This document shows positions 39,816 through 61,005 of a DNA stretch of 64,000 nucleotides, in pieces. The number at the start of each line of letters is the position of its first letter. The stretch's first letter is position 1. A model generated the notes under the pieces. It did no database searches, was not told where the DNA came from, and saw nothing but the letters and a program-made list of their open reading frames with translations. The stretch comes from Actinacidiphila glaucinigra (lineage in GTDB: Bacteria; Actinomycetota; Actinomycetes; Streptomycetales; Streptomycetaceae): assembly GCF_900188405.1 (NCBI RefSeq), contig NZ_FZOF01000016.1, positions 62,001 to 126,000 of the forward strand, read 5' to 3'. The translations under genes and the position numbers were made by a program.

Positions 39816-41801
39816 TCAGGCGATCAGCCCACCCGCTGCGAGTCGATCGCTCACATCGTTCACCAATCCCTTGCCCAGGGCATCAGTCTTCGTGAGGAGC
39901 GCCTCGAATGCCATGAGGCGCCGGAAGGTATCGGCATAGGCCGTCTGTTCCTCCAGGGGAAGTTGGAGCACCTGGAGGCGCCTGATGTCGACCCGGGAGG
40001 AACTCGAGGCGTGCGTGCCTGCCTGGCGTCCGTTGGCCGGAGCACGCAGACAGCCGGCGAGGAAGTGGGCGTCCAGTTTCTCCGGGTCCACTCGCAGGGT
40101 GTAGAGCTGGGCGCCCAGGGCCACCGGCGGCCCCTCGTGCACCCAGGCTTTGAAGGCCCGAACCACTCCTGCGACCACGACGTCACCCTCCTCGGCGACG
40201 GCTTGTGCCGAGTTTGCGGGGAGCACTCCGCTGGGACGGCCGTCCATCAACAGATCGGCGACCGTGAGAAGGGGGATGGTGGGATCGCGACGAGACTCCA
40301 TGGTTTCCAGGGAGTGTTGTCCGGCACGCAGAGTGAGGGCGCCAGCCTTGACCAGGTCCCCCACAGCGGCCGTGGTTTGCAGTACCTCGGTCTCGAAATC
40401 AAGTTTGGACAGATGTTGCGCGTGGCCGGCCAGGTCGGCCAATGATTCCGCCAACTCTTGCCACGACGCTGCGAGTTCAACGCCGGAAGGTTCAGTGCTC
40501 GATGCGGTGTAGCGACCCGGAGTGACGTCTACCTCGTCGTCGAGAAGATCCAGAAGCGGGATGCGAACGGCGCTTTCCGGTGGATCGTCGTCCGGGCGGT
40601 CGAGGGTTTCGAGGGCGGAGAGGACGAAGCAGTCGAGAGCGTCCCAGTTCGGTCCCGGTTCGCGTGAGCCCGGTCTTGCGAAGCGTGTGGCATCTACCAG
40701 TAGGACGTCCTGGTAGGTCGGGCCGGGGGCAGAGCTGTCCGGGGCGGCTCTGAGAACCCACAACTGAAGTGACACGCTGTGCGGTTGTGCGCTGCCGGGC
40801 GGCAAAGCGACGACCGCTCGAAGTGCGCCCGTACGCAGCAGGGAACCTCGGATGCGGCGGCCCGCCTTGCGGGACGCAACAGCGGGTGGAAGGACGATGA
40901 CGGCCACTCCGCCGGGTTTGAGGTGGGAGAGCAGGTGCTGCACCCAGGCCAGTTCCGGCTCGGTCCTAGGCGGTAGACCGTGAGCCCAGCGCTGGTCGGT
41001 GGCGAGTTCTTCGTAGCCCCAGTCGCGTTCGTTGAACGGTGGGTTGCAGAGCGCGATGTCGGCACGAGCCCCGGCGAAGGGGTCTTCGCGCAGTGCGTCG
41101 GCTGTAGCGATCTCGGAACGGACCTGTCGGTCCTCCGTGATGAATCCGAGTCGTGCGGAAGCCAGAGCGGCGAGTGCCGGATCCTGCTCACACGCCAGTA
41201 CCGCCAGGTCTGAGCCGTCGTATTCTTGCGCAGCCGCGGCAGGTAGATGTCCGGTTCCGCAGGCCGGATCGAAGACGGTCAATCCCCCTTCAGCTTCGCC
41301 GAGACGGGAGGCGAGGGCGATCCGGGCCATCAGCGCGGCAAGTCTTGGAGGCGTGGTACTGAGCTGCCGCACGTGTGTTTCGAGCCATCGCTGCAGGAGG
41401 AATTCAAAGGTTTCGCGTGGTCCCTCGCTGCGGCCCAGTCGCGCCGCTTCATCCGCCAGGTCCCTTGCTTCCGCGGAGAGCTCGAACGCTGCGGCCCGAG
41501 CGTGAGGAGAACGCATTCGCCGGGCCGCCTCGGCAACGGCCAAGCCTGACTCGTCCCTGCTGCCGAGGGCCTCGAACCGGGGCCAGAGGAACTCGCGACC
41601 ACCGTTGTCCTTGAGCTTGCCGTTGTCGCGTAGCCACAGCTCGACCTCCCCCAGTGAGAACTGGGGGCTGACGTCGGTGCCACCAATACGAGTGGGGAAC
41701 GAGTCGTGACGGCGGCGCCAGTTGCTCACTGCCGCGCGCCCCACGCCGGCGATCCGGGCGATCTCGGCCAAGCTGACGGGTACGGCGCTGGGTGCACTCA
41801 T
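39816..41801 (-). CDS. HTH-fused N6-adenine DNA methylase (661 aa)
   Basis: It resembles the methylation/specificity parts of type I-like systems. A MerR/excisionase-like HTH is at residues about 10-60 (SLAEIARIAGVGRAAVSNWRR). A helical region follows, then the SAM motif TVFDPACGTGHLP (about 175-187) and the N6-adenine catalytic motif IALCNPPFNE (NPPF at 253-256). The C-terminal third (about 420-661) resembles an S-subunit-like target-recognition part ending in VDIRRLQVLQLPLEEQ. ATG 41801 is preceded by GGAGACC. It is divergent from two Ser/Thr kinases and shares their promoter region. No restriction subunit adjoins it. Confidence 0.85.
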   Translation of the reverse strand: MSAPSAVPVSLAEIARIAGVGRAAVSNWRRRHDSFPTRIGGTDVSPQFSLGEVELWLRDNGKLKDNGGREFLWPRFEALGSRDESGLAVAEAARRMRSPHARAAAFELSAEARDLADEAARLGRSEGPRETFEFLLQRWLETHVRQLSTTPPRLAALMARIALASRLGEAEGGLTVFDPACGTGHLPAAAAQEYDGSDLAVLACEQDPALAALASARLGFITEDRQVRSEIATADALREDPFAGARADIALCNPPFNERDWGYEELATDQRWAHGLPPRTEPELAWVQHLLSHLKPGGVAVIVLPPAVASRKAGRRIRGSLLRTGALRAVVALPPGSAQPHSVSLQLWVLRAAPDSSAPGPTYQDVLLVDATRFARPGSREPGPNWDALDCFVLSALETLDRPDDDPPESAVRIPLLDLLDDEVDVTPGRYTASSTEPSGVELAASWQELAESLADLAGHAQHLSKLDFETEVLQTTAAVGDLVKAGALTLRAGQHSLETMESRRDPTIPLLTVADLLMDGRPSGVLPANSAQAVAEEGDVVVAGVVRAFKAWVHEGPPVALGAQLYTLRVDPEKLDAHFLAGCLRAPANGRQAGTHASSSSRVDIRRLQVLQLPLEEQTAYADTFRRLMAFEALLTKTDALGKGLVNDVSDRLAAGGLIA

Positions 41802-41885
41802 CGAAAGGTCTCCGAGGGGCTTGGCCGGCTGAGCTGGTCGGCGTCCCAGCGGCCGTGTTGCATGGAAGGGTACTACGCTTATTGA

Positions 41886-41910
41886 CTCTGTTCACAGCGA
41901 AAAACTGTGA
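41886..41910. promoter_or_regulatory. Shared divergent promoter/operator with GTTCAC core and palindrome
   Basis: The 143-bp space between the HTH-methylase and kinase genes carries TTGAC followed nine bases later by GTTCAC (within CTCTGTTCACAGC, 41886-41898). It also has an inverted repeat TCACAG (41892-41897) / CTGTGA (41905-41910) around AT-rich bases. The same 13-base motif recurs at 44274-44286. This region is much less GC-rich than the genes. Role as operator is inferred. Confidence 0.55.
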
Positions 41911-41944
41911 GTCGGCTGTGTGGGAAGTGTAGAGGGTGGGAGAA

Positions 41945-42880
41945 ATGCAGAGATTCAAGCCGGGAATGGTGCTTCGCGACCGCTACCAGCTGAAGTCCGT
42001 CCTCGGCCGAGGAGTGATGGGGCAGGTGTGGCAGGGCCGTGACCTGTATCTGGACCGGCCGGTGGCGGTGAAGACCATTGCCGCGGAACTGCTGGCCGTC
42101 CCCCGGAGCCGCGATGAGGCACTGGCTCGTTTCAAAAGAGAGGCACAGGCCGCGGCGCGCCTCGGCCATCCCAACATCACCACGGTTTTCGATGCCTCGA
42201 TCACGGACGACACCTGTTGTCTGGTGATGGAGCTGATCGAGGGCACCACTCTGGAGCACCTTTTCGATCAACATGAGGACGGACGATTCGACGTGCCCTC
42301 GGCCGCCGCGGTCGCCGCCCAGCTGTGCTCCGGACTGTCCGCTGCCCACGCCGCCGGCTTGGTGCACCGTGACCTCAAGACGCAGAACGTCATGGTCCGA
42401 CGGGACGGAGTCGTGAAGATCCTGGACTTCGGACTGGTGAAACTGCTCGCCGATACCGATCCACGCCTGACCATGACAGGCGAAGGCATCGGCAACATCC
42501 TCTGCGCGTCGCCAGAACTGCTGTCCGGCGGGAACGAGCTCGACGGCCGCAGCGATCTCTACGCGGTGGGCTGCCTGCTGCACCACATGCTCACAGGTGA
42601 GACGCCTTTCGCCAGCGACCAGCCGGCGCTCCTGGCCTCCCACCATCTGAGTTCGCCCCCGCCCGCCATCTCCGACTCTGACATCCCCGACGACCTTCGG
42701 GAGCTGGTGACGGCTCTGCTCGCGAAGCATCCGGACGACCGTCCCTCTTCGGCAGTCGAGGTCTACGCGACTCTCGCTCGCTACCTGCCGGACCCGAACC
42801 CGGTGCTGGCCACCCGTCGCGCGCGGCCCGAGGATCCCCGCCGCCCATTTCTGGTTCCGCAAGGGCCGTGGCCGGTGTGA
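41945..42880 (+). CDS. Hanks-type Ser/Thr protein kinase 1 (311 aa)
   Basis: A complete cytoplasmic kinase domain: glycine loop GRGVMG (21-26), Lys43 in VAVKTI, HRDLKTQN (Asp143, Asn148), DFG (161-163), the APE-like segment CASPELLSGG and a final R in DDRPSS. No transmembrane helix or sensor domain follows, unlike PknB-type kinases. ATG 41945 is preferred to GTG 41936 because GGGTGGGAG precedes it. A second kinase follows 98 bases later. Substrates are unknown; nearby DNA methylases and helicases are candidates. Confidence 0.92.
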   Translation: MQRFKPGMVLRDRYQLKSVLGRGVMGQVWQGRDLYLDRPVAVKTIAAELLAVPRSRDEALARFKREAQAAARLGHPNITTVFDASITDDTCCLVMELIEGTTLEHLFDQHEDGRFDVPSAAAVAAQLCSGLSAAHAAGLVHRDLKTQNVMVRRDGVVKILDFGLVKLLADTDPRLTMTGEGIGNILCASPELLSGGNELDGRSDLYAVGCLLHHMLTGETPFASDQPALLASHHLSSPPPAISDSDIPDDLRELVTALLAKHPDDRPSSAVEVYATLARYLPDPNPVLATRRARPEDPRRPFLVPQGPWPV

Positions 42881-42978
42881 ACGGTGAGAGGATGGGTTCA
42901 GCCGACCGGGTGCGCCGCGCCGCCCCGGTCGCAGGGGTGTGACAGGCGCCACCGGCGCCGGGACTGGGGACGGGCGCA

Positions 42979-44241
42979 ATGCGGCGAAGCCTTCGGCAGT
43001 ACGAGCTGACGCGCGAGCTGGGCCGGGGCGGCATGGGAGTCGTCTGGGCGGCGTACGACCGCGACCGTGGCCGTGAAGTCGCTGTCAAGCTTCTCGCTCC
43101 CCGCGGCCTTGGCGCTGAACTCAGCACGCTGGAGCGCCGGTTCCTGCGTGAGGCGCACCTCACCAGTCGGCTGGAACACCCGGGCATCCCCGCCGTCCAC
43201 GATCATGGCAGCCACGAGGGCGAGCTTTACCTGGTCATGGATCTTGTCCGGGGTCGTGGCCTCGATGCCGCGCTCGAGAGCGATGGCCCGCTGCCCGTCG
43301 AACGAGCCGCGGACGTTGCCCGGCGGGCTGCCGAGGTGCTCGCCTACGCCCACGGGCAGAATGTCGTACACCGCGACCTGAAGCCGTCGAACCTGATGAT
43401 CACCCCGAACGGCGAGATCAAGGTCCTCGACTTCGGCGTTGCCGCGGCCCTGGAGCCCCAGCCCGGCGAGACCCGCTTCACCGCTGCCAACGCCACCCCC
43501 GGCACGGTCGTCTATATGGCGCCCGAGCAGGCAGTGGGAAAGGCCGTCGCCGCCAGCGACCTCTACTCGCTGGGGTGCGTCCTGTATGAGCTTCTCACCG
43601 GCGTTCCGCCTTTCAGCGGTGGCAGCCCCTTCATGCTGTACCACCAGCACGCGCACGAACCCGTGCCTCCACTGGCCGACCGCCGCTCCGGTGTTCCGAT
43701 CGGGCTGAGGGCATTGGTGGCGGGGCTTCTGGAGAAGAAGCCCGAGGACCGGCCCGCCTCCGCGGCGGAGGTGGCCGCCCTGCTCGCCCCCTGGATCCCG
43801 CAGCAGGGTCCGGGACCCGCGGCGGCGCCCGCGCATCCACGTCTGACCGAGATCGCCGCCGTTCGCCGGTCAGGACGCCCCGCCCGAGCCCTGGAGGAAT
43901 ATCGCGACCTCATGGACGTTCCCGGCCTCGGGCACGCCGACCTTCTCGCCGCCAGAGCCGGATCCGCCCTCTGCGCCGGCGCGCTCGGCCGCACGCGCGA
44001 GGCTTTGGACGAGCTGAAGTCGGTCCTCGCCGAACAGCGCAGCTTTCTCGGATCGGGTGACACGGCGGTGCTGGACACGCGGTATGAGATCGGTGTGCTC
44101 CTGGTGCGCACGGGAGAGCGGCTCGCTGCCGAGGAACTGCTGCGGCGCCTGGCAGACGAGGAGGAGAGGGTCCTGCCGGTGGCCGATGCCCGGCGCGGAC
44201 GCAGTCGAGCCCTACTGGACCGGCTGCGGCGGATGGCCTGA
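42979..44241 (+). CDS. Hanks-type Ser/Thr protein kinase 2 with helical C-terminus (420 aa)
   Basis: Glycine loop GRGGMG (15-20), Lys37 in VAVKLL, HRDLKPSNLM (Asp133), DFG (151-153) and MAPEQA with DLYSLGCVLYELLTG. The kinase domain ends near residue 270. The remaining 150 residues are helical and TPR-like (EIAAVRRSGRPARALEEYRDL, then GALGRTREALDELKSVL). No membrane helix is present. The activation segment and all catalytic residues are kept. It lies between kinase 1 and DrmD in the same direction. Confidence 0.92.
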   Translation: MRRSLRQYELTRELGRGGMGVVWAAYDRDRGREVAVKLLAPRGLGAELSTLERRFLREAHLTSRLEHPGIPAVHDHGSHEGELYLVMDLVRGRGLDAALESDGPLPVERAADVARRAAEVLAYAHGQNVVHRDLKPSNLMITPNGEIKVLDFGVAAALEPQPGETRFTAANATPGTVVYMAPEQAVGKAVAASDLYSLGCVLYELLTGVPPFSGGSPFMLYHQHAHEPVPPLADRRSGVPIGLRALVAGLLEKKPEDRPASAAEVAALLAPWIPQQGPGPAAAPAHPRLTEIAAVRRSGRPARALEEYRDLMDVPGLGHADLLAARAGSALCAGALGRTREALDELKSVLAEQRSFLGSGDTAVLDTRYEIGVLLVRTGERLAAEELLRRLADEEERVLPVADARRGRSRALLDRLRRMA

Positions 44242-44273
44242 GTCCTTCTCCGCACCGACCATGGTTTTGTAAT

Positions 44274-44286
44274 CTCTGTTCACAGC
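44274..44286 (+). promoter_or_regulatory. CTCTGTTCACAGC motif upstream of drmD
   Basis: These 13 bases are identical to those at 41886-41898. They lie 95 bases before the drmD start in a locally AT-richer stretch. This suggests that the methylase/kinase genes and the drmD-drmMI pair answer to the same factor. The identity is seen; regulation is inferred. Confidence 0.5.
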
Positions 44287-44380
44287 AAATTGTTCGTGTT
44301 ACGCTGCGATCGCTCCGTTTCGGTGGGGAGACAGGACACTGTCTACGGACGGCAGCAGAGACACCGAGGGGACAGCGCCC

Positions 44381-47300
44381 ATGACGCCAGCAGCTCAGCG
44401 CGAGACCGAGCGCACCGAGGCGGGACAGCTCCCCGAGGAGGGCAACCTCGTCGAGGTGCGCGGCCAGTCCTGGGTGGTCTCCCGCGTCGAGCCGTCACCC
44501 GCCGCCGACGGAGACGACGAGCGCAGGCCCGCCACCCTCGTCCACCTCCAGTCCGTCGCCGACGGACGCTTCGGCGACACCCTCTCCGTCATCTGGGAGG
44601 TCGAGCCCGGCCGCCGTGTGCTGCCCGCCGGTTCCCTCCCCGACGCCTCCACCGGCTCCTACGACTCCCCGGGCCGCCTCGCCGCCTTCCTCGACGCCGT
44701 CCGCTGGTCCGCCGTCGCCTCCGCCGACGCCAAGACGCTCCAGGCCCCGTTCCGCTCCGGCGTCGCCGTCGAGCCGTACCAGCTGGAACCGGTCTCCCGA
44801 GCCGTCGGCGCGCCGCGCGTCAACCTGCTCCTGGCCGACGACGTCGGCCTCGGCAAGACCATCGAGGCCGGCCTCGTCGTCCAGGAACTGCTGCTGCGCG
44901 GCCGAGCCCGCCGCACCATGGTCGTCTGCCCCGCTGGCCTGACCCTGAAGTGGCGCGACGAGATGGCCGAGAAGTTCGGCCTGGAGTTCACCATCGTCGA
45001 CTCCGAGCACTGCGCCCGGCTGCGCCGCACCCACGGCACCGCCGCCAACCCCTTCCGCGTCCACCCGCTCACCATCGTCTCGCTGCCCTGGCTGCGCGGA
45101 CAGAAGGCACAGCGCCTCCTCGACGAGGTCATCGGCGCGCCCGAGGAGAGCTCCGACGGGGAGCACAAGCGCTTCTTCGACCTGCTGGTCCTCGACGAGG
45201 CCCACCACGTCGCGCCCGCCGCGCCCAAGCAGGTGTACGCCGTCGACTCCCAGCAGACCAAGCTGATCCGGCGCCTCGTCCCGCACTTCGAGCACCGGCT
45301 CTTCCTCTCCGCCACCCCGCACAACGGCTATCCCGAGTCCTACACCGCGCTCCTGGAGCTCATCGACGACCAGCGCTTCGCCCGCGGCGTGGACCCGGAC
45401 AAGGAAGCCCTCAAGGACACCGTCGTACGGCGCCTGAAGTCGACCGTCACCAACGCCGACGGCACGCCCCGCTTCCGCACCCGCAAGACCCTTGAGCTCT
45501 CCGTCGACTACACGCCGCAGGAGCGCGAGATCCACCAGCTGCTCGGATCGTTCGCCGAGCTGCGCCGTAAGAAGCTGACACCCACGGCTCGCGGCGGGCG
45601 CCGCGCCGCCGACCTGGTCACGCTGCTGCTGAAGAAGCGCCTCTTCTCCTCCCCGGCGGCCTTCCTCCACACCGTCCAGGTGTACCTCTCCCACCTGGAC
45701 GACACCGGCCCCGCGCGCGGCCGTGCGGCCGCGGCCGAGGTGCCCGAGTGGCTGGAGGAGTTCGCCGACCTCGTCGCGGACCTGGACGACACCGGCCTCG
45801 TCGACGCCGAGGACGACGCCCTGACCCGCTCCACCTCCCTCACCCCGGCCGAGGACGGTCAGGAACTCGACCTGCTGCAGGAGATGGAGCGCTGGGCCCT
45901 CACCCACGAGGCCGCGCCGGACTCCAAGGCCGATGCCCTGATCCGCACCCTCAAGGCGCTCTGCCGTCCCGACGGCAGGAACTGGACCAATGAGCGGGTC
46001 GTCATCTTCACCGAGTACCGCGACACCCAGGAGTGGCTGCACGACCTGCTCCAGCAGGAGGAACTCACCGACGGCGGCCGCGTCGAACGCCTCCACGGCG
46101 GACTGTCCGCCGAGGAACGCGAGCGCATCCGCCTCGGCTTCCAGGCCGAGCCGTCCCGCGTCGAGGGCAAGGTCCGCATCCTCCTCGCCACCGACGCCGC
46201 CGGCGAGGGCATCGACCTCCAGAACCACTGCCACCGCCTGATCAACTACGACATCCCGTTCAACCCCAACAAGCTCGAACAGCGCATCGGCCGCATCGAC
46301 CGCTGGGGCCAGAAGAACGACCCGGAGATCACCCACTTCATCGGCTCCGGCTGGCAGCAGGCCCAAGCCGGCTCCTACGAGGCCGACCTGGAGTTCCTCT
46401 CCCGCGTCGCCAAGAAGGTCGCCCGCATGGAGCACGACCTCGGCTCCGTCAACGCCGTCCTCGCAGACGCCGTCCAGCGCCGCATGACCGGCGACACGGC
46501 GCCCGTCGACATCGAGAACGCCAAGCCCAGGCCCATCAAGGGCCGTCGCACGGGCGGCGACGTGGCACCCGAGCAGAACGTCACCGCACAGACCAAGAGG
46601 CTCGCCGACCAGTACGAGGAGACCGTCGACTCCCTCGGCCTCACCCCGGCCAGCGTCAAGCGCGTCGTCGATACCGCCCTCGCGCTCGACCACCAGCCCG
46701 CGCTCCTCCCCTCCCTCCTCCGCGCGGAGGACTTCGAGCCGGGCGACCTCTTCGACGTGCAACCCCTGTCCGGCAGCTGGGAGCGAGCGACCCGGGGCCT
46801 GGCCCACAAGCTCCGCGAGGGCGAGCAGCGGCCGCTCACCTTCTCCCCGGCGGTCGCCGCGCAAGGCCGCGACGACGTGGTCCTCGCCCACCTCAAGCAC
46901 CCGCTCGTCGCCCTCTCCACGCGCCTGCTCACTGCCGCCGTGTGGAACGCCGACTCGGTCGGCCTCAACCGCGTCACCGCCGTCGTCTCCGACGACCCGG
47001 CCGTCACCACGACCCTGGTCTCCGCCTATGCGCGCTACGTCCTCGTCGGCACCGACGGCACCCGCCTCCACGAGGAAGTCCTGCACGCGGGCGGCTGGTT
47101 CGGCGACACCGGCCGCTTCCGCCGCTGGGAGTCGGTCGGTGAACAGGGCAGGGTCCTGTCCCGCGCCCTCACCGAGGGAAGCGAGGCCGCCCCGCACCTG
47201 CGCAAGGAGCTGACCGACGCCTGGCCGAAGCTCCGTGACCCGCTGTACCGGTCACTGAGGACGCGGGCCGACGAGCTCGGCCGCCAGCTGGAGAGCCGGC

Positions 47301-47620
47301 TCGCCGACCGCCGGGCCGAGGAGGAGCGCCGCATCACCGCCACCCTCGACCGCTTCGAGGCCACCCTGCGCGCCAAGCTCAAGGAGGAGGGGGACGGCGA
47401 GGGCGAACAGCTCGCCCTGCTGTCGACCCACGAGCTGACCGGCCACGAGCGCCGGCAGTTCGAGGACGACCGCCGCCGCTGGCAGGAACGCCTCGAAGGC
47501 CTTCCTGGCGAACGCGAGCGCGAACTCGCCGCCATCGCCGCCCGCTACCGCGAGCCCCGCTCCCACGTCTTCCCCGCCGCAGTCGTCTTCGTCATTCCCG
47601 CAAAGGACGCCCGCCGATGA
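44381..47620 (+). CDS. drmD: DISARM-type SNF2-like helicase DrmD (1079 aa)
   Basis: An SF2/SNF2-like ATPase. Walker A DDVGLGKTIEAG (GLGKT 156-160), DEAH box VLDEAHHVAP (near 271), motif III SATPHNGYPES, helicase C-terminal VIFTEYRDTQEWL (near 541), TDAAGEGIDLQ and motif VI QRIGRIDRWGQ (near 634). The overall sequence pattern and length fit DrmD of class 1 DISARM, recalled from memory. It overlaps the methylase drmMI by four bases (ATGA), matching the class 1 order. Partners drmA, drmB and drmC are absent from the visible flanks. The third codon positions show strong C bias, unlike the later part of drmMI. Confidence 0.85.
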   Translation: MTPAAQRETERTEAGQLPEEGNLVEVRGQSWVVSRVEPSPAADGDDERRPATLVHLQSVADGRFGDTLSVIWEVEPGRRVLPAGSLPDASTGSYDSPGRLAAFLDAVRWSAVASADAKTLQAPFRSGVAVEPYQLEPVSRAVGAPRVNLLLADDVGLGKTIEAGLVVQELLLRGRARRTMVVCPAGLTLKWRDEMAEKFGLEFTIVDSEHCARLRRTHGTAANPFRVHPLTIVSLPWLRGQKAQRLLDEVIGAPEESSDGEHKRFFDLLVLDEAHHVAPAAPKQVYAVDSQQTKLIRRLVPHFEHRLFLSATPHNGYPESYTALLELIDDQRFARGVDPDKEALKDTVVRRLKSTVTNADGTPRFRTRKTLELSVDYTPQEREIHQLLGSFAELRRKKLTPTARGGRRAADLVTLLLKKRLFSSPAAFLHTVQVYLSHLDDTGPARGRAAAAEVPEWLEEFADLVADLDDTGLVDAEDDALTRSTSLTPAEDGQELDLLQEMERWALTHEAAPDSKADALIRTLKALCRPDGRNWTNERVVIFTEYRDTQEWLHDLLQQEELTDGGRVERLHGGLSAEERERIRLGFQAEPSRVEGKVRILLATDAAGEGIDLQNHCHRLINYDIPFNPNKLEQRIGRIDRWGQKNDPEITHFIGSGWQQAQAGSYEADLEFLSRVAKKVARMEHDLGSVNAVLADAVQRRMTGDTAPVDIENAKPRPIKGRRTGGDVAPEQNVTAQTKRLADQYEETVDSLGLTPASVKRVVDTALALDHQPALLPSLLRAEDFEPGDLFDVQPLSGSWERATRGLAHKLREGEQRPLTFSPAVAAQGRDDVVLAHLKHPLVALSTRLLTAAVWNADSVGLNRVTAVVSDDPAVTTTLVSAYARYVLVGTDGTRLHEEVLHAGGWFGDTGRFRRWESVGEQGRVLSRALTEGSEAAPHLRKELTDAWPKLRDPLYRSLRTRADELGRQLESRLADRRAEEERRITATLDRFEATLRAKLKEEGDGEGEQLALLSTHELTGHERRQFEDDRRRWQERLEGLPGERERELAAIAARYREPRSHVFPAAVVFVIPAKDARR

Positions 47621-50600
47621 GCCCCCGCCGCCCGATGAGCCCCGGACTCGCCGCCGCCAAGGCCCAGGCCGCCGACGGCCGCAGGCAGCACCAGGAGTGG
47701 CTCGACCTCAGCGAGGTCTCCGGCCCCTTCCTGACCATGCCTGTCCTGCTGCGGGCCTGGCCCCAGCTCGACCCCCTGGAGAAGGACGAGCGGGCCCGGC
47801 TGCGCGCCCGCCACGCCGACTGGCAGACCGACACCACCGCGGGCCGCGACGAGTGGGTGGCCTACATCCTGCGCCGTCTCCTCGGCTGGGACGATGCCCT
47901 GACCTTCCGGCAGGGCGAAACCGAGCACCATGGCCTGGACCGCCTCACCCTGCGTGTGGCGGAGCACAACACCGAAGTCCGCCCCGACTTCGCCCTGGTG
48001 GAGCCCGGCTACGATCTCGCGGCCGAACCCGACACCGCGTCCGCCGCCAAGCGCGTACGCCTCCTCGGCATCACCGTCCCCGCCGGCACCGCGCCCACCG
48101 CCCGCGCCGGCGGGGGCGGCGACTGGGCCGCCGCCCCCGCCGACCGTCTCGCGCGGCTCCTGCGGCACCACGGCGTCCCCCTCGGCCTCGTCACCGACGG
48201 CCGCTGGTGGTGCCTGGTGTGGGCACCCCTCGGCGGCGTCACCACCACTGCCGTCTTCGACTCCATCGGCTGGAACGAGGCCGCCGAGCGCAACGTCGTC
48301 CGCGCCTTCGCCTCCCTGCTCAGCCGCCGCCGCTTCTTCGAGTACGAGGAGGCCGAGACCCTCGTCGGCCTCCTCAAGGCCAGCCTCGCGGCCGGCGAGG
48401 ACGTCACCGAGGCCCTGGGCATCCAGGTCCGGCAGGCCGTGGAACTCCTCGTCGACGCCATAGGGCGCGCCGACGTCCGCGCCGTCGAGCACGGCGCACC
48501 CGGCCTGCACGCCTCGGGCGTGGCCGCGGGCGAGGTCTACCGCGGCGCGGTCGCGGTGATGATGCGCGTCGTCTTCCTCCTCTTCGCCGAGGAACGCGGC
48601 CTGCTCCCCGCCGACAACGAGGTCTACGCGCGCTCCTACTCCGCCCGCTTCCTGCGCGACGAGCTCAAGGCCCGCGCGGACGAGGAGGGCGAGACCTCGC
48701 TCGAGCACACCACCTCGGCCTGGCACCGGCTGATCGCGCTCTTCCACGCCGTGCACGGGGGAGTGGACCACCCGGGCTCCGGCTTCCACCTGCCCGCGTA
48801 CGACGGCTCGATCTTCGACCCCGACACGTACCCCTGGATGGAGCGCACCACCCCGCTCCTGCCGATCGACGACCGCACGGTGCTCCACATGCTCCAGGCG
48901 GTGCAGGAGGTCCGCGTCGGCAAGGGCAAGGACCGCGAGGTCCGCACCCTCAGCTTCCGCGCCCTGGACGTCGAGCAGATCGGCTACGTCTACGAGGGCC
49001 TGCTCTCGTTCGACGGGCGCCGGGCGACCGAGCACATGGTGGGGCTGATCGGCCCGGAAGGGCTGGAGCACGAGGTGCCGCTGCGGGAACTGGAGTCCCT
49101 GGCGGCGAAGGCGGGATCGGTCAAGACGCTGGCGAAGGCCGTCTTCGACAAGTGGAAGGACCCCAAGCCCCCGGCGACGGCGGGCCAGTTGGAGAAGCGC
49201 CTCGCCCCGCTCGGGGCGGAGGACGCGGCGGAGGCACGGCGCCGGCTGAACGCGGTGACCAAGGACCCGGCACTGACGGAGAGGCTGCTGTCGTTCGTCG
49301 GCATCCTGCGTGACGACCTGCGGGGCCTGCCGACGGTCATCCCGAACGGCGCCCTCTACATCACCGAGTCCTCGCTGAGGAAGAACACGGGCACCCACTA
49401 CACGCCCCGTTTCCTGGCGGAGGAGGTCGTGCTGCACGCGCTGGAGCCCCTGGTGTACGAACCGGGCCCGCTCCAGACGGCGGACACGGGGGAGTGGCGT
49501 CTGAAGTCGGCTGAGCAGATTCTCGACTTGAAGGTCGCGGACATCGCGATGGGCTCGGCGGCATTCCTGGTGGCGGCCTGCCGCTACCTGGCGGACCGAC
49601 TGATCGAGGCCTGGGAGTCCGAGGGCCGCGTGGACGCGATGACGTACCGGGCGGGGCGGGCGGTGGACGCCGTGACGGCGGCCGACGCCGAACAGGACTC
49701 CGTGGTCGTGGAGGCCCGACGCCAGATCATCGAGCACTGCCTGTACGGGGTGGACATCAACCCCATGGCGGTGGAGATGGCCAAGCTGTCGCTGTGGCTG
49801 GTCTCCATGGACCCGGGCCGGCCGTTCACGTTCCTGGACGACCGGCTGGTGGCGGGTGACTCGCTGCTGGGCGTGCACAGCCTGGAGCAGATCCAGGCCG
49901 TACACATGAAGCCGGGTCAGCAGGCCGACATCCTGGCGGAGCAGGCCCGGCAGTTGGTGGACGAGCTGACGCGGGAACGACTGGCGATCACCGCGATCAA
50001 GGGCGTCGACCTGCCCGCGCTCCAACAGAAGCGGCAGCGTCTGGCTGAAGTCAACCGCCACTCCCGGCGCCTACGGCTGGTCGGCGACCTGATCGCGGGC
50101 GCGGCACTGGCGACGTGCGCCTCGGGGCGGGTGGAGTGGTACGCGCAGAACGGTGGCGATCGCGTCAGGGACCTGTTCCCGCAGGCGGCCTGGATCGTGC
50201 GGCAGATCATCGGCGAGGGGGTTGAGGATGACGCGCATGTGGTGCGCGAGGCTAAGGCGACAGCGGAAGAGTGGTTGGCGGCGGAGTCGCCGCAGGGGTC
50301 CCTTGAGCGGCGGCCGGTGCACTGGCCACTGGTGTTTCCGGAGGTCTTCAATAGACGGGCGGGATTTGACGCGATCGTAGGTAACCCGCCGTTCTTGGGC
50401 GGGCAGAAACTCACTGGTGCAATGGGGGAGGCATATCGAGAGTACATGGTTGAATACCTTGCGAACCGAAGGCGGGGTAGTGCAGATTTGGTCGCGTACT
50501 TTGAGCTACGCACTCATCGATTGCTTGCTTCCCGGGGGCAAACGGGACTTATTGCGACGAACACCCTGGCTCAGGGGGATACACGCACGGTTGGCCTGGA

Positions 50601-51951
50601 TCAGTTGGCTGAAGAGGGGATTCTGATCCGGAGAGCGATTAAGAGCGCGCCCTGGCCTTCACGGTCTGCCGTGCTTGAATACTGTGCAGTATGGACTAGT
50701 AAGGCGCCCATCATGGGCGCCGCGGAACGATTCGTGGGTGATTTGCCTGCCCCGCAGGGAATCTCAACCGCACTGAATCCGGCAAGTCGCGTAGCATCGT
50801 GGATCGAGTCGCTTCGCGAGAATGGGGGAGTTTCATTCCAGGGGTCTATCGTGCTCGGCCTAGGATTTACACTCCCTGAAGCCGATGCGAAAAAATGGAT
50901 CGCCGAAGATGAGAATTATGCCGAGGTTTTGTTTCCGTATCTAAATGGGCAGGACGTCAATAATCATCCGCAGCATCTGAGTTCTCGTTGGGTTATTAAT
51001 TTCCGCGATTGGTCGGAGAGTCGAGCGCGGGAGTTCCCAAGGGCATTTTCTAAGATCGAGGCAGACGTTAAGCCTGAGCGACAGCGGCGCAAGCCCGATG
51101 GTTCCTACGTACTGCGCAAACCCCTTCCTGAGCGCTATTGGCACTATGCAGAAAAGCGACCTGCTTTGATGGCAGCGCTTGCTCCCCTGGAGCGTTGCAT
51201 GGTGATTACCCGCCATACACACACAGTCATTCCTGCAATGGTGCCAACTGGATCGGTGTTCAGTGAGGCAACTGTCGTGTTTGCCTCCAGCGACCATGCA
51301 CTATTGGCCGTTCTTAGTAGCTCCCCTCACTACTGGTGGGCGATTAATTGCGCGTCTACGATGAAGGGGGATCTACGTTACACGTCAACGGACGTGTTCG
51401 AAACGCTCGTTCGCCCGACTAAGACTGACAGGCTTCGTGCCGCTGGTGCCCTTTTGGATTCCTACCGACGTAATCTTATGGCGGCTCGCCAGATAGGGCT
51501 TACTGCCACCTATAATCTAGTCCACGACCCTGACTGCCAGGACGAGGAAATCGTCGAACTCCGCCGCATCCACGAGGAGATCGACAAAGCCACGGTCGAG
51601 GCGTATGGCTGGAACGATCTGCTGGACGACTCTGGGCGGACATTGCCCGCAGATCCGACCCACGAGACTTTCCCGCTCGACCATGGCTTCCAAGATACCG
51701 ATCAGGGGAAACGCTACACTGTTGGTCTACTCGCTCGGACCGAGATTATCGACCGTCTGCGACAGTTGAACCACCAGGTCTTCGCCGACGAGGTTCACCT
51801 TGGGTTGCATCCGATGCAAGAGAAGAAGGCGAAAGAAAATCATCGCGATATGCCCTTGCCTTCTCCGGAAGCCGTGATGAGGCGCAGGGAGCAGCTTGCC
51901 AGGCGAGGTAATACGGATTTCGGTGAGGGCACCGAAGGAGCTCTCTTCTAA
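47617..51951 (+). CDS. drmMI: DISARM-type N6-adenine methylase DrmMI (1444 aa)
   Basis: A large Eco57I/PglX-like methylase. The SAM motif region is VADIAMGSAAFLVAACRYLA (near 640), where the usual GSG is GSA. Next are VDINPMAVEMAKLSLWLVSM, FLDDRLVAGDSLLG and the N6-adenine motif NPPF (923-926). The remaining 520 residues form the target-recognition and helical C-terminus. GC content and codon bias change sharply near 50370-50420, just after NPPF: the first 2.75 kb is very GC-rich and the last 1.5 kb clearly less so. This suggests replacement of the specificity domain by recombination. It overlaps drmD and is followed by a broken IS110. Confidence 0.85.
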   Translation: MSPRRPMSPGLAAAKAQAADGRRQHQEWLDLSEVSGPFLTMPVLLRAWPQLDPLEKDERARLRARHADWQTDTTAGRDEWVAYILRRLLGWDDALTFRQGETEHHGLDRLTLRVAEHNTEVRPDFALVEPGYDLAAEPDTASAAKRVRLLGITVPAGTAPTARAGGGGDWAAAPADRLARLLRHHGVPLGLVTDGRWWCLVWAPLGGVTTTAVFDSIGWNEAAERNVVRAFASLLSRRRFFEYEEAETLVGLLKASLAAGEDVTEALGIQVRQAVELLVDAIGRADVRAVEHGAPGLHASGVAAGEVYRGAVAVMMRVVFLLFAEERGLLPADNEVYARSYSARFLRDELKARADEEGETSLEHTTSAWHRLIALFHAVHGGVDHPGSGFHLPAYDGSIFDPDTYPWMERTTPLLPIDDRTVLHMLQAVQEVRVGKGKDREVRTLSFRALDVEQIGYVYEGLLSFDGRRATEHMVGLIGPEGLEHEVPLRELESLAAKAGSVKTLAKAVFDKWKDPKPPATAGQLEKRLAPLGAEDAAEARRRLNAVTKDPALTERLLSFVGILRDDLRGLPTVIPNGALYITESSLRKNTGTHYTPRFLAEEVVLHALEPLVYEPGPLQTADTGEWRLKSAEQILDLKVADIAMGSAAFLVAACRYLADRLIEAWESEGRVDAMTYRAGRAVDAVTAADAEQDSVVVEARRQIIEHCLYGVDINPMAVEMAKLSLWLVSMDPGRPFTFLDDRLVAGDSLLGVHSLEQIQAVHMKPGQQADILAEQARQLVDELTRERLAITAIKGVDLPALQQKRQRLAEVNRHSRRLRLVGDLIAGAALATCASGRVEWYAQNGGDRVRDLFPQAAWIVRQIIGEGVEDDAHVVREAKATAEEWLAAESPQGSLERRPVHWPLVFPEVFNRRAGFDAIVGNPPFLGGQKLTGAMGEAYREYMVEYLANRRRGSADLVAYFELRTHRLLASRGQTGLIATNTLAQGDTRTVGLDQLAEEGILIRRAIKSAPWPSRSAVLEYCAVWTSKAPIMGAAERFVGDLPAPQGISTALNPASRVASWIESLRENGGVSFQGSIVLGLGFTLPEADAKKWIAEDENYAEVLFPYLNGQDVNNHPQHLSSRWVINFRDWSESRAREFPRAFSKIEADVKPERQRRKPDGSYVLRKPLPERYWHYAEKRPALMAALAPLERCMVITRHTHTVIPAMVPTGSVFSEATVVFASSDHALLAVLSSSPHYWWAINCASTMKGDLRYTSTDVFETLVRPTKTDRLRAAGALLDSYRRNLMAARQIGLTATYNLVHDPDCQDEEIVELRRIHEEIDKATVEAYGWNDLLDDSGRTLPADPTHETFPLDHGFQDTDQGKRYTVGLLARTEIIDRLRQLNHQVFADEVHLGLHPMQEKKAKENHRDMPLPSPEAVMRRREQLARRGNTDFGEGTEGALF

Positions 51952-52058
51952 TACTCCAGCAGGATTTTTCTGTCCGACCTGCGGGTTTCGCTGGGCGGCT
52001 GGAGTTTAGCGGGCCACGGCAAGGTCAGTGACTGCAAAAAGAACGGCACCTCTCTGTG

Positions 52059-52720
52059 TCAAGCGGGGGCGATCAGAGAGGGATCCCGGTCGCGGAGCAT
52101 CGTGCGGTAGACGACATCGGCCAGCCGGCGCTTGAGGCAGCGGAGGGCTTCTTTGTGGCCTTTTCCTTCTGCGCGTTTCCGCTGGTAGTAGGCCTGTCCC
52201 GGGGTGGGGTGGCGGATCTGGGTGATGGCCATGACGTGCAAGGCGGAGTTCAGTTGCCGGTCCCCTGCTCGCGAGAGCCGGTGTCGTTTCACGTCCCCGG
52301 AGGACACCTCCAGGGGTGCGACGCCGCAGTAGGAGGCGAATGCGGCCTCCGAGCGGAAGCGGCCGACGCCCGCGGTGCGGGTGAGGATCTTCGCGGCCAG
52401 CAGGTCCCCGATGCCGTGGAGTTCGGTGAGGGTGGTGCTGGACTCGGCCACTGCTGTAGTGATCTGCTCGGTGACGGTGGTGATCCGGCGGTCCAGGCGG
52501 CGGATCTCGGTGACGAGGTCCGTGGCCAGGGCGCGCAGGGTGCGGGCCAGGGACGCCTTGGGCCGGATGGCCCCGCAGGGCTGCGGCAGCAGTATCGGCG
52601 GTCAGCTTGCGCGGCAGGCCGGCGGGCACGAGCTTGGTCATCAACGCGTGGAGGCGGTTGACGGTCTGGGTGCGGGTCCGGACCAGGTCGTCGCGGTGCT
52701 CGGTCCTCGGCCTGTGGGTG
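52059..52720 (-). pseudogene. Frameshifted, truncated IS110-family transposase
   Basis: The C-terminal transposase_20 (HhH-like) domain is intact in frame: LTELHGIGDLLAAKILTRTAG, SYCGVAPLEVSSGDVKRHRLSRAGDRQLNSAL and YYQRKRAEGKGHKEALRCLKRRLADVVY. Upstream the match (AEHRDDLVRTRTQTVNRLHALM) is in another frame. An extra base in CTGCGGGGCC near 52575 explains the shift. The N-terminal DEDD catalytic domain is gone. It sits between DrmMI and the low-GC methylase/MBL pair, where DISARM drmA might be expected. Confidence 0.85.
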
Positions 52721-52958
52721 GGCGACGGCGGCGAAGGCGCCAAGTACTGGCTCCAGGTCCCAAGGTCCGGTTGGAGTATCAACCAGTCCTACGCGAAATC
52801 CGGACCCTGGTCGAGCGAGTCGTCGTCATGGCGAACCTCCCCAAACTCAGGTCCCCAACCACCCGCATCACGACCCTCATCCAGGCCATCCTCTGTCTAC
52901 ATCTGGCCTGCTCAGAGCGGTGATGGAGAAAGCTCAATGTTGCCAGCGCAGGGACATC

Positions 52959-53954
52959 CTAAACCTCTTTGCAGAGGGGGCTGGGCCACTGATTAATTCG
53001 CATCTGCTGGTCCGCTGGGTGTGTTGATATTACAACCGTTGACGGCATTACAAGGGCTTGAACAGATCCAGCACATTGAGTTGATCTCAAGCCAGCAAGA
53101 GCACTCTGAGCGGTTCCAGAGTTTCGACTTTCGCGGGTTACGTAGCCAAAGCAGCCTGGCGTAACTTGCGTGCACATCACTTTTGAATGAACGGCAGCTG
53201 AAGCCACGATCGTCGCCGATGGATGTCCGTATCTGTTGGATGCCCCTGTCGATATAATTAGGTGCTCAGGGGCCACAGTCTCCAATACATCTTTGCGTAT
53301 TTCCCCATCGCGGTCTCCGTGAAGATCAGCACCATGGTGCGGCCAGCGGAGAATGTCCGCATCTATCCGTACTCCATCGTGAATCAGGCGTTCCCATGTG
53401 GACCCCACAGCATCCCCGCCTATCAGGATTCGCGTGGCCCCAATTTGGACAAGAACAATCGCGCTAGCTAAATTCCTCTTCTTTCGTGCGTAAGCTTCGG
53501 TCAGCTCCCTTTGATCAGGAGCTAGCATGCACCAACTGATTGCACCCAGCATCCCGCGTGCACCTTCTATAGCCCCGTCCAATCGGGTTTGAGACCGGTC
53601 AAAATCAAGGAACTGCAGGAGTGTGGTTCGTATTTTGAACCCCGACTTTTTATCGTCAGAGAATAGGGTGTCATGATTGTAGATTATTCGGCTTGGCGTG
53701 CTTGCCGAGGCGACGCGCGCTATGCCTCCATAATGATCCACATCCCAGTGAGTCGCAATTACAGTATGAATACTTATCCCTCTGCTGCGGGTAAATTCCA
53801 CTATCTGTTCAGCTCTACCCGCTGGGCAGTCAATCAAGAGTGCACTGTTAGTGATGGGATCGATTATGATCGTGCAGTCACCTTGGCCGACATCCAAGAA
53901 CCAAACTTCGGCAATCGGTGACTCTGCTGTCAGCGTGAGATCGACGGCGTTCAT
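52959..53954 (-). CDS. ComEC-like metallo-beta-lactamase-fold hydrolase (331 aa)
   Basis: An MBL-fold enzyme of the ComEC/Rec2-like type. It shows the early VGQGDCTII motif (22-30), the metal motif THWDVDHYGG (HxxxDH, 69-74), a GGDAVG segment and PHHG. There is no membrane part, so it is a free-standing nuclease or hydrolase. ATG 53954 overlaps the stop of the upstream methylase (ATGA), so the two are coupled. Base composition is far lower in GC than the rest of the window, indicating recent transfer. MBL proteins of this type occur in some defence operons; the substrate is unknown. Confidence 0.8.
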   Translation of the reverse strand: MNAVDLTLTAESPIAEVWFLDVGQGDCTIIIDPITNSALLIDCPAGRAEQIVEFTRSRGISIHTVIATHWDVDHYGGIARVASASTPSRIIYNHDTLFSDDKKSGFKIRTTLLQFLDFDRSQTRLDGAIEGARGMLGAISWCMLAPDQRELTEAYARKKRNLASAIVLVQIGATRILIGGDAVGSTWERLIHDGVRIDADILRWPHHGADLHGDRDGEIRKDVLETVAPEHLIISTGASNRYGHPSATIVASAAVHSKVMCTQVTPGCFGYVTRESRNSGTAQSALAGLRSTQCAGSVQALVMPSTVVISTHPADQQMRINQWPSPLCKEV

Positions 53955-56584: not shown

Positions 56585-57015
56585 GTAGCTGGCCTCGTTC
56601 CTCGACTTCGAAGATCAAATGGTTCTACTAGTGCTATGTTGAGCCGTGGACATGACACGGCTCCGGGCTTACCACGTCAAGTCCCCAGCACCATGTTCCG
56701 TTGGGAGAACTCGATGGTGAGTTCCACGAACGCGGCCGGCTCGTCCCGGCCGACCCGCAGTGCTGGTGTGTCGTCCACGATTCTTCGAGTCCTCTATGGA
56801 CACGGCGCCCGTTCTGGCAGCCGCCTCGACGCGATACCCGCCGCATGTCTGCTGTACCTGCTCTCGAATCACGGGAGCCTCGTGGCCTGGATGGCGTACC
56901 GATCGACGCTCATAGCTCCGGTCCCATGCGCTCTCTAAGCTCGCCGACTGTTCGTGTGCCTCCCGCCTGATCGATACCGCTGCGGCCTACGATCAAGACC
57001 TAATTATCGCGGTGT
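56585..57015. other. 431-bp intergenic stretch with a DUF397 relic
   Basis: This lies between the low-GC methylase start and the DUF262 gene stop, both leftward. It contains a frameshifted DUF397 remnant (listed separately). GC rises again to the right of it, so it marks the edge of the low-GC insert. Confidence 0.5.
56677..56872 (-). pseudogene. DUF397-domain gene remnant
   Basis: One minus-strand frame reads VEAAARTGAVSIEDSKN, the typical middle of a DUF397 protein. A neighbouring frame then continues with VDDTPALRVGRDEPAAFVELTIEFSQ, the typical end. A one-base frameshift at the DSKN junction joins the two. No complete start or HTH partner gene remains. DUF397 genes usually pair with Scr1-type regulators in Streptomyces. 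Confidence 0.55.
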
Positions 57016-59562: not shown

Positions 59563-59651
59563 GCGCTTCCTTTCCCTGCCGGGTGCGCGGGTCTTGCCGG
59601 TCCATCCAGCGGCCCCGCCCTGGGATGGCACAACGGTCACTCGAATCTAAC

Positions 59652-59788: not shown

Positions 59789-60628
59789 TCAGGCCTTCGC
59801 GACCGTTTGCGCGACGCCCGACTGACGGGAGATCCGGGGCATCGTCTCGTTGGGGGACCGGCGGAGGAGCTTGACGTTCCGGCCCTCGACCCAGGCGTTC
59901 CACGACTTGAGGTAGTACAGCAGGTGCTCGCGTGAGTCGTCGCGGCGGCGGTGCGCACTGCCCGCGGCCAGGCCGAGCATGGTGTTGCGCAGGGTGAGGC
60001 GAGGGTCGCCCGATTCCAGCAGCGCTCCGGTGACTACCCCTTCGAGCCAGGAGGACTGGTCGATCTCGGGCCGCGCGGTCGTCGTGACGTACCAGCCGAT
60101 CGTCGCCGCCGTGACCGTGATGCGGCATCCGCGGTTGAGGGCGATGCCGTGGTTGAGGGAGTCGCGGATGCCGGGGTGCTGGTCGAGGATGACAAGGAGC
60201 TGGTCGTTGCTGGTGACGGATGAGGCGCCGCTCCACGCGGAGTTCGGAGCGTGCAGGTACAGGTGAAGCCCACGCAGGGCCGCTGCGAGGTGTGTCGCGT
60301 TGGCCTCGCCGGCGAGCGCCAGCGCGTCGCGGCCTGTGCGCTTGCGCCCGGTGTCCATCACGGTGAAGGCGGTACGGGGAACGCCATGGGTGACGGTCAA
60401 TGGCACCGTGACCCCGGCCCTGACGATCGCGGCCAGCCGGTGCTGACCGTCGATGAGTACGTCGTCCTCGTCGAAGGCGATGCCCTGGTGCGTGAGTTGC
60501 CACTCTCCGCGCTGGATCTGGCCGGCCAACTGCTGCACTGTGTTCTTGCTGAGGGGACGGTTGTTGGTGTTGCGAGTGAGCCACTGTGAGGCCAACTCGG
60601 GGGTGACGTCGAAGACTTCTGTCTGCAT
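59789..60628 (-). CDS. ParB-like DGQHR-motif protein (279 aa)
   Basis: The motif LIDGQHRLAAIVRAG (near 58) follows an N-terminal ParB/sulfiredoxin-like strand and helix (NRPLSKNTVQQLAGQIQRGEW). The rest is helical and unrecognised. DGQHR or ParB-like domains occur in DndB and in other modification-linked proteins. ATG 60628 was selected, with AAGGAG upstream. It is the gene before DUF262 in the same direction with its own motif-bearing promoter region. Confidence 0.75.
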   Translation of the reverse strand: MQTEVFDVTPELASQWLTRNTNNRPLSKNTVQQLAGQIQRGEWQLTHQGIAFDEDDVLIDGQHRLAAIVRAGVTVPLTVTHGVPRTAFTVMDTGRKRTGRDALALAGEANATHLAAALRGLHLYLHAPNSAWSGASSVTSNDQLLVILDQHPGIRDSLNHGIALNRGCRITVTAATIGWYVTTTARPEIDQSSWLEGVVTGALLESGDPRLTLRNTMLGLAAGSAHRRRDDSREHLLYYLKSWNAWVEGRNVKLLRRSPNETMPRISRQSGVAQTVAKA

Positions 60629-60691
60629 GGCGAGTGAGCCTTCTCCTTGTGTGACACCGGGCGTGTGACGCCTGCAGGCTTGCATGGAAAT

Positions 60692-60706
60692 GTGAACTCA
60701 GTCAAC
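60692..60706 (-). promoter_or_regulatory. GTTGAC-N3-GTTCAC motif upstream of DGQHR gene
   Basis: Read on the minus strand, GTTGACTGAGTTCAC lies about 64 bases before the DGQHR start. It matches the motif before the DUF262 gene in arrangement. The role as promoter element or regulator site is inferred. Confidence 0.5.
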
Positions 60707-60891
60707 CGAGAAACCGTGCCCTCGGTGCGTACTCGTGGGATTGGGTGACCCTTTGCCGGGTGATCCAAGGGGTCGGCGACCCTGTGGGTGGATCCGTCGG
60801 GCTCCGACCGGCTCGAGAGCGCTGCCGGTTCGCAAGGTTTCATAGGGGGTGACCTTGGCGGTCTTCCTGATACCCTCGCCGCGTGTGCTCA

Positions 60892-60927: not shown

Positions 60928-61005
60928 CAGTCGCGCTGGGTGTGGCCAGGGGCGGGATTTCACAAGGCGGCCACCAGGTGGCCCTCAGCAGCAGTGGGGT
61001 GGCGT

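What the first reader, a model, noticed from the sequence alone, without database searches (positions are those of the whole stretch)
39816..51951. Candidate kinase-associated DISARM variant: HTH-methylase, two Ser/Thr kinases, DrmD and DrmMI without drmABC
DrmD and DrmMI are sequence-typical class 1 DISARM components and overlap by four bases. Known class 1 systems also carry drmA, drmB and drmC, none of which is seen in the window. Instead the genes upstream are two complete cytoplasmic Hanks kinases, and a divergent HTH-N6-methylase with a probable specificity tail. Shared 13-base promoter motifs link the two halves. A phosphorylation-controlled, two-methylase helicase system would be new.
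Basis: partly seen in the sequence, partly recalled or inferred. Interest (0 to 1): 0.85.

Follow-up and report, generated by a model that had tools for sequence, protein, structure and literature searches.

The report
Split DISARM defence locus with kinases
A known type of anti-phage system (class 1 DISARM) is present here complete but cut in two by other defence genes, and in Streptomyces and its kin it has gained two protein kinases, and often a second DNA methylase, that appear to share a genetic switch with it.

Summary
The five genes are real and at the stated coordinates. The central claim, "without drmABC", is wrong: drmA, drmB and drmC lie on the same strand of the same contig, starting about 5.4 kb past the window end and 17.4 kb after drmMI. 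This is a complete class 1 DISARM split by other genes.

DrmD with kinase neighbours is one clade of Streptomycetaceae (32 of 32 rows; 0 of 46 others). In 394 family genomes all 14 K2 orthologs sit just upstream of drmD. The HTH-methylase is within 6 kb in 20 of 34 kinase loci and 8 kinase-less ones.

An operator-like element, TGTGAACNNAGTYMAC, marks the methylase|kinase 1, drmD and uvrD|drmA promoters and a helicase-nuclease module inside the split; its exact form occurs four times in 9.8 Mb, three here.

Best reading: an operator-linked, probably phospho-regulated extension of class 1 DISARM, with the drmMI/drmA junction as a slot for other defence genes (2.2-34.9 kb in 27 of 27 measurable genomes). 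Kinase substrates and regulator are unknown. New variant of a known kind.

The parts
39816..41801 (-). HTH-N6-adenine methylase with one C-terminal TRD-like part and a long C-terminal helix (MT)
   Evidence: N6_Mtase 1.7e-28; PADLOC MTase_I PDLC03037 6e-86; AlphaFold2 model mean pLDDT 82; Foldseek matches are type I and other adenine methylases, TM-score 0.29-0.42 by query length
41880..41896 (-). operator-like element TGTGAACAGAGTCAATA between MT and kinase 1
   Evidence: equivalent site in 18 of 26 loci, the 18 with MT divergent upstream
41936..42880 (+). cytoplasmic Ser/Thr kinase 1 (K1); ATG at 41945 is another possible start
   Evidence: Pkinase 3.4e-44; motifs intact; dN/dS 0.19 against 10 relatives
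42979..44241 (+). cytoplasmic Ser/Thr kinase 2 (K2) with a C-terminal region of weak TPR-like match (below Pfam cut-off)
   Evidence: Pkinase 1.3e-47, TPR_12 19.8 bits against a cut-off of 30.1; motifs intact; 14 of 14 orthologs just upstream of drmD
44268..44284 (-). operator-like element TGTGAACAGAGATTACA in the drmD promoter (weaker second half)
44381..47620 (+). drmD, SNF2/RapA-like helicase
   Evidence: NCBIfam DISARM_DrmD 1361.6 bits; PADLOC DrmD 1413.7 bits
47617..51951 (+). drmMI, Eco57I/MmeI-like N6-methylase
   Evidence: PADLOC DrmMI 1749.2 bits; Eco57I, MmeI_Mtase, MmeI_TRD
51952..57015 (.). variable slot between drmMI and gmrSD; here an MBL-fold gene 52959-54002 (-) and an N6-methylase gene 53951-56584 (-)
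   Evidence: slot content differs between the 27 mapped loci
57016..59640 (-). GmrSD-type (type IV-like) restriction enzyme
   Evidence: GmrSD_N 3.5e-34, GmrSD_C 9.3e-27; cluster in 21 of 27 mapped loci, 15 of them between drmMI and drmA
59789..60685 (-). 298-aa protein (likely start 60628) with an invariant DGQHR motif, next to gmrSD
   Evidence: cluster in 12 of 27 loci; alignment of 12, mean column identity 78%; only about the first 80 residues of the model are confident; no Pfam or PADLOC match
60691..60707 (+). operator-like element TGTGAACTCAGTCAACC upstream of the 298-aa gene
60882..60898 (-). second operator-like element TGTGAACTGAGCACACG at the start of the helicase-nuclease ORF
60883..64000 (+). 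~2,000-aa SF1 helicase-nuclease gene; runs out of the window to C37:128954 (window position 66954). Beyond it, outside the window: UvrD-like helicase C37:129036-131207 (-), operator-like element 131298-131314, drmA about 131376-135218 (+), drmB 135212-137107 (+), drmC 136978-137868 (+)
   Evidence: AAA_11, AAA_12 and MTES_1575 nuclease domain; PADLOC PDC-S37 2.8e-50, partial Hhe match; cluster in 15 of 27 loci; drmABC and UvrD

Best explanation
This is a complete class 1 DISARM (drmD, drmMI, drmA, drmB, drmC) of Streptomycetaceae that has gained two cytoplasmic Ser/Thr kinases and, in most of the mapped loci, an HTH-N6-methylase, and that is split between drmMI and drmA by a slot that fills with other defence genes. 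Shown by sequence: gene content, linkage, a single kinase-bearing DrmD clade, and an operator-like element at the MT|K1, drmD and uvrD|drmA promoters and at the helicase-nuclease module in the slot. Inferred: DrmMI and the HTH-methylase each mark host DNA; DrmAB, helped by DrmD and the UvrD-like helicase, loads on unmarked or 5'-overhang DNA; DrmC or the helicase-nuclease degrades it; GmrSD covers phages with modified DNA; one DNA-binding regulator co-expresses the halves. The least certain step (I give it about 0.4) is that the kinases act as a switch that phosphorylates DISARM parts (DrmD, DrmMI and the DrmA trigger loop are candidates) or the regulator. The score below is for the genomic reading (kinase-bearing, split, operator-linked class 1 DISARM).
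For: All five class 1 genes in one genome. drmA downstream on the same strand in 27 of 27 genomes with both genes on one contig, of 33 examined. Kinase loci are one clade, SH-aLRT 99. K2 orthologs in 14 of 394 family genomes, 14 of 14 just upstream of drmD. Kinase motifs intact here and in nearly all close relatives. dN/dS 0.16 (MT), 0.19 (K1), 0.18 (K2), near DrmMI's 0.18. Element: at least 12/15 in 27 of 27 drmD promoters, at least 13/15 in 26 of 27 drmA promoters and 18 of 26 K1 promoters, against 10 of 600 random windows reaching 13. 107 sites at 14/15 or better in 27 loci and none in three block shuffles of each. Exact form 4 times in 9.8 Mb, 3 of them here, reversed-pattern control 0.
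Against: No biochemical or genetic data: no kinase substrate and no regulator is known. The HTH-methylase is missing from the upstream position in 8 of 26 loci (in G023 and G028 a 46-55% relative lies on the far side of drmC instead) and occurs with kinase-less DISARM (8 loci), so it is optional. K1 shows none of five motifs tested in G026, and only VALK and DFG in G031; K1 of G020 lacks the glycine loop pattern; K2 of six distant loci reads HRDLT. drmA carries in-frame stops in G020 and G022 and is in pieces in G024, so not every copy need work. Seven of 21 family genomes with DrmD lack K2 at the threshold. Slot content differs, so some slot genes are passengers. The consensus was read from these same promoters, so its scores there are partly circular. 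Palindromic relatives of the element also occur in kinase-less loci, so it is not tied to the kinases.
Confidence: 0.7

Rival explanations
1. One reading: drmD-drmMI with kinases and HTH-methylase is a free-standing defence system that works without drmABC.
For: Inside the window no drmA, drmB or drmC is seen; the halves are 2.2-34.9 kb apart.
Against: The own genome has drmA, drmB and drmC; all 32 other kinase-type genomes searched have a strong DrmA match; same strand in 27 of 27; shared element.
Confidence: 0.05
2. Ordinary defence island: kinases, methylase, GmrSD and helicases are independent neighbours of a normal DISARM, kept together only because defence genes cluster.
For: Slot content is variable; the methylase and gmrSD also occur near kinase-less DISARM; kinase-less DrmD makes up 46 of 78 tree rows.
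Against: K2 orthologs were seen only just upstream of drmD (14 of 14 in 394 genomes); one kinase clade; fixed order and a shared promoter element across up to 35 kb.
Confidence: 0.2
3. The element is the site of a general host regulator (for example of stress or development), so the shared motif says nothing about a joint machine.
For: No regulator gene common to all loci was identified; palindromic relatives TGTG-N9-CACA occur upstream of drmD in 12 of 46 kinase-less loci; one exact copy lies elsewhere in the genome.
Against: The exact form has only four copies in 9.8 Mb, three at this locus, too few for a broad regulon of exact sites; looser sites were not counted genome-wide.
Confidence: 0.3

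Closest known systems
Class 1 (type I) DISARM
   Same: DrmA, DrmB, DrmC, DrmD and DrmMI all present; PADLOC asks for these five genes and forbids drmE (PMC9252829, passage seen).
   Different: Split by 17.4 kb here; two Ser/Thr kinases, and often an HTH-methylase and a UvrD-like helicase, as companions; promoter element shared by both halves.
ARMADA (DISARM-related)
   Same: Also pairs a BrxHII/RapA-like helicase and a PglX-like methylase with a YprA-type helicase (PMC12458937, passages seen).
   Different: The DrmA here matches DISARM DrmA models; the word kinase does not occur in that paper's text.
BREX type 2 / Pgl
   Same: A Streptomyces phage defence that combines a kinase (PglW) and an adenine methylase (title of a reference seen; details recalled).
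   Different: Kinases score 55 and 84 bits against PglW (cut-off 990), DrmMI 19.8 bits against BREX-2 PglX (cut-off 400).
MADS (methylation-associated defence system)
   Same: Methylase plus kinase; weak profile similarity of MT and of both kinases.
   Different: MAD2 20 bits against a cut-off of 720; MAD6 144 and 155 bits against 460.
BREX with embedded GmrSD enzyme BrxU (plasmid pEFER)
   Same: A type IV GmrSD-family enzyme inserted in a methylation-based system, for complementary cover (PMC8565348, abstract start and passages seen; that BrxU is GmrSD-family is recalled).
   Different: Here the host system is DISARM, and gmrSD sits beside a helicase-nuclease whose promoter region carries the DISARM promoter element.

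Membership tests
Class 1 DISARM | drmD and drmMI present | tested here: met
Class 1 DISARM | drmA, drmB and drmC present in the same genome and locus | tested here: met
   PADLOC DrmA 1.2e-300, DrmB 7.9e-69, DrmC 4.9e-115; same contig and strand, 17.4 kb after drmMI
Class 1 DISARM | no drmE (PADLOC rule) | not tested
   no drmE search was made in the genome
Class 1 DISARM | anti-phage activity dependent on these genes | not testable with these tools
   needs a bench test
MADS | MAD2 methylase and MAD6 kinase by curated cut-off | tested here: not met
   20 bits against 720; 144 and 155 bits against 460
BREX type 2 / Pgl | PglW kinase and PglX methylase by curated cut-off | tested here: not met
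   55 and 84 bits against 990; 19.8 bits against 400; PglZ not searched
ARMADA | ARMADA-type YprA helicase | tested here: inconclusive
   DrmA matches DISARM DrmA models strongly; no ARMADA model was run

The most novel reading that the evidence does not exclude
The MT|K1-K2-drmD-drmMI half, the gmrSD/298-aa/helicase-nuclease module and the uvrD|drmA-drmB-drmC half form one regulon and one layered immune machine: a kinase-gated DISARM with built-in type IV restriction and a helicase-nuclease, switched on together through TGTGAACNNAGTYMAC, with the drmMI-gmrSD interval as a loading bay for further defence genes.
Probability: 0.35. Interest if true: 0.8.

Novelty: new variant of a known kind. 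Interest (0 to 1): 0.6.

Why it matters
How DISARM is switched on and regulated is unclear: the DrmAB structure paper leaves the interplay with DrmD and DrmE to future work (PMC9142583, passages seen). A clade in which two kinases are tied to drmD gives a direct way in: delete or kill the kinases and measure protection, methylation and phosphorylation. The shared element makes DISARM transcription testable with reporters. In the library searched no paper came up that describes kinases or a shared operator in DISARM (searches, seen as listings; the word 'kinase' sought in three papers: 0, 0 and 1 unrelated occurrence). The original DISARM paper was not held, so this is no proof of absence from print.

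Tried and rejected
Rejected: 'no drmABC'. MADS and BREX type 2 as the family, since scores are far below cut-offs. The minus-strand ORF 60985-63075, first taken as a gene, is an antisense shadow of the 2,023-aa ORF at 60883-66954. The element as a kinase-clade invention: a palindromic form TGTG-N9-CACA is also upstream of drmD in 12 of 46 kinase-less loci, against 24 of 4,000 random windows and 0-3 of 46 for 11 other spacings.

Led nowhere or weak: the structure of the 298-aa protein (mean pLDDT 48); genus-level co-occurrence (only 35 genomes held: DrmD in 3, K2 in 1); plasmid search (24 records, all under 60% identity); the fourth exact motif site (C33:104909) was fetched and its ORFs listed but not interpreted; one paper search gave nothing.

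Caveats on counts: the DrmD scan kept the best 80 of 111 confirmed loci. L020 and L021 are near-copies, and L031 and L032 come from one genome. L008, L010, L067 and others are cut by contig ends. Six of 33 kinase-type genomes have drmD and drmA on different contigs. L001, L008 and L032 were left out of the tree. Gaps subtract a nominal 4,335 bases for drmMI, those a nominal 4,050 (in L080 drmMI is not next to drmD). In one search contig identity was not checked; L053, L061 and L063 have drmA at lower coordinates than drmD, L050, L055 and L073 on the other strand; L039 was searched but not placed. Gene calls in relatives come from my own GC-frame script, so small genes may be missed and some starts are too far upstream. 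K1 of G012 gave no motif because the cut began before its start; one search shows a 313-aa ORF there. K2 of G032 is cut by the contig end. The shuffles are two-base block shuffles, three per locus. Synonymous distances run from about 0.3 to 1.0 in the rows printed.
Full report
What is there. The window is contig C37, bases 62001-126000, of a 9.8 Mb genome in 80 contigs. DrmD and DrmMI are sequence-typical and overlap by four bases. Kinases 1 and 2 have complete catalytic motifs here. The HTH-methylase model (mean pLDDT 82) has a helical HTH-like N-terminal part, a Rossmann methylase core and one TRD-like part ending in a long helix (domain names are my reading of the model). Its best Foldseek matches are type I methylases and other adenine methylases, though superposition over the full length is poor (TM-score 0.29-0.42 by query length).

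drmABC are present. A search of the own genome with a DrmA relative finds C37:131376-134855, and with a DrmB relative C37:135221-137068. Family scans name the three frames DrmA (1.2e-300), DrmB (7.9e-69) and DrmC (4.9e-115). They start about 5.4 kb past the window end and 17.4 kb past drmMI, on the same strand.

Conservation. One scan of one-genome-per-species contigs with DrmD returned the best 80 of 111 confirmed loci. A kinase just upstream of drmD is found in 34 of these 80, plus the own locus L001. In a tree of 78 DrmD rows the 32 kinase rows are one clade (SH-aLRT 99, one change; shuffled labels need 25 on average, 0 of 500 as low). The nearest sister rows (L043, L056, L058, L059) are Streptomyces DISARM loci without kinases that carry a gmrSD gene upstream of drmD. 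The HTH-methylase lies within 6 kb of drmD in 20 kinase loci and 8 kinase-less loci. In 394 genomes of the family, DrmD (E at most 1e-250) is in 21 and K2 (E at most 1e-75) in 14; all 14 K2 genes lie within about 0.9 kb upstream of drmD on the same strand. Seven genomes have DrmD without K2 at that threshold: G289, by coordinates the L020 locus, where a 42%-identical K2 is present, and six others (DrmD 52-71% identical) not looked at further.

Split layout. Of 33 kinase-type genomes (32 reached through loci, plus the own), 27 have drmD and drmA on one contig. In 27 of 27 drmA is downstream on the same strand, with a gap after drmMI of about 2.2 to 34.9 kb; in the other six the genes are on different contigs. 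The DrmA match has in-frame stops in G020 and G022 and is in pieces in G024. Among 38 kinase-less loci compared by coordinates, drmA is downstream on the same strand in 32: nearly contiguous (under 0.6 kb) in 11, and 2.0-14.6 kb away in 21; the other six are at lower coordinates, on the other strand or not comparable. So the drmMI/drmA junction is a frequent insertion slot, not peculiar to kinase loci.

What fills the slot. A UvrD-like helicase gene is present in 26 of 27 mapped loci: divergent from drmA in 16, after drmC in 8, upstream of kinase 1 in 2 (in two pieces in G024, not seen in the stretch of G030). A GmrSD gene cluster occurs in 21 of 27 (15 between drmMI and drmA, 6 elsewhere in the mapped stretch), the 298-aa neighbour in 12 of 27 and the ~2,000-aa SF1 helicase-nuclease in 15 of 27. 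The helicase-nuclease has AAA_11/AAA_12 and a restriction-endonuclease-like MTES_1575 domain and matches PADLOC PDC-S37 and, partly, Hhe. The 298-aa protein has an invariant DGQHR motif. The rest of the slot differs between genomes; a large methylase cluster (k16), of which the one member scanned is type ISP-like, recurs in 6 of 27.

Operator-like element. It scores at least 12 of 15 in 27 of 27 drmD promoters, at least 13 in 26 of 27 drmA promoters (G026 is the miss), and at least 13 in 18 of 26 K1 promoters; those 18 are the loci with the methylase divergent upstream. Ten of 600 random windows from the same loci reach 13, true sites not removed. The consensus was read from these promoters, so this comparison is partly circular; the genome-wide and shuffle counts are the better controls. 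At a threshold of 14 (with slightly looser letters) there are 107 sites in the 27 loci and none in three two-base block shuffles of each; all 15 loci with the helicase-nuclease have at least one site at its start. In the own genome the exact form TGTGAACNNAGTCAAY occurs four times, three of them in this locus (MT|K1, window 60691-60706, uvrD|drmA), with a reversed-pattern control of zero; the drmD site is a weaker variant. A palindromic relative, TGTG-N9-CACA, is upstream of drmD in 12 of 46 kinase-less loci. The element is therefore probably an older DISARM feature; the regulator is unknown.

Selection. Mean dN/dS against ten relatives is 0.16 (MT), 0.19 (K1), 0.18 (K2), 0.13 (DrmD), 0.18 (DrmMI), 0.10 (UvrD, DrmA and DrmB) and 0.23 (DrmC), so the companions are kept like the core. 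Against the reading: in the distant part of the clade K1 shows none of five motifs in G026 and only two in G031, and K2 of six loci reads HRDLTPRN.

Mechanism. From published work, DrmAB is autoinhibited by a DrmA trigger loop and opened by DNA with a 5' overhang (PMC9142583, passages seen). I infer that the kinases add a control layer, by phosphorylating DISARM proteins or the regulator, and that the two methylases mark host DNA at different sites. None of this is shown. GmrSD beside a methylation-based system recalls BrxU inside BREX (PMC8565348, abstract start and passages seen).

Verdict. By gene content it is class 1 DISARM (drmE absence untested), in a kinase-bearing, split and operator-linked form for which I found no description in the library searched.

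Noticed in passing
G000:C37:143132-145285 (L003:17132-19285, -): A second HTH-N6-methylase, 37% identical to the one in the window, lies about 5 kb past drmC and matches PADLOC MTase_I PDLC03037 over nearly its full length.
   Followed up: partly
window 52959-56584 (-): An MBL-fold gene (ComEC-like by NCBIfam, below cut-off) and an N6-methylase gene overlap by 52 bases in the variable slot; the methylase fell in no gene cluster shared with the other mapped loci.
   Followed up: partly
window 20457-25643 (+): A TrwC-type relaxase with an AAA_30 helicase part, which suggests a mobile element near the defence region.
   Followed up: no
L182:9909 (G000:C33:104909-104924): The only exact copy of the operator-like element outside this locus in the own genome; the gene it may control was not worked out.
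   Followed up: partly
L036, L039, L041, L046, L051, L057, L061, L062, L065, L068, L070, L071, upstream of drmD: Palindrome TGTG-N9-CACA within 300 bases upstream of drmD in these kinase-less loci: a probable wider actinobacterial DISARM operator.
   Followed up: partly
L004:18923-19420, L006:17865-18719 and like places after drmMI: HTH_31-DUF5753 regulators and small HATPase_c_2 proteins recur in the slot or nearby (clusters k9 and k10 in 18 and 15 of 27 loci; one member of each scanned).
   Followed up: no
window 36519-37982 (+): A UvrD-like helicase ORF upstream of the methylase, in no cluster shared with the other mapped loci.
   Followed up: no
PADLOC model PDLC02572 against window 44381-47620: A PADLOC model named DrmA matches DrmD over its full length (1227 bits), so that model seems to be mis-named or to mix the two helicases.
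   Followed up: no
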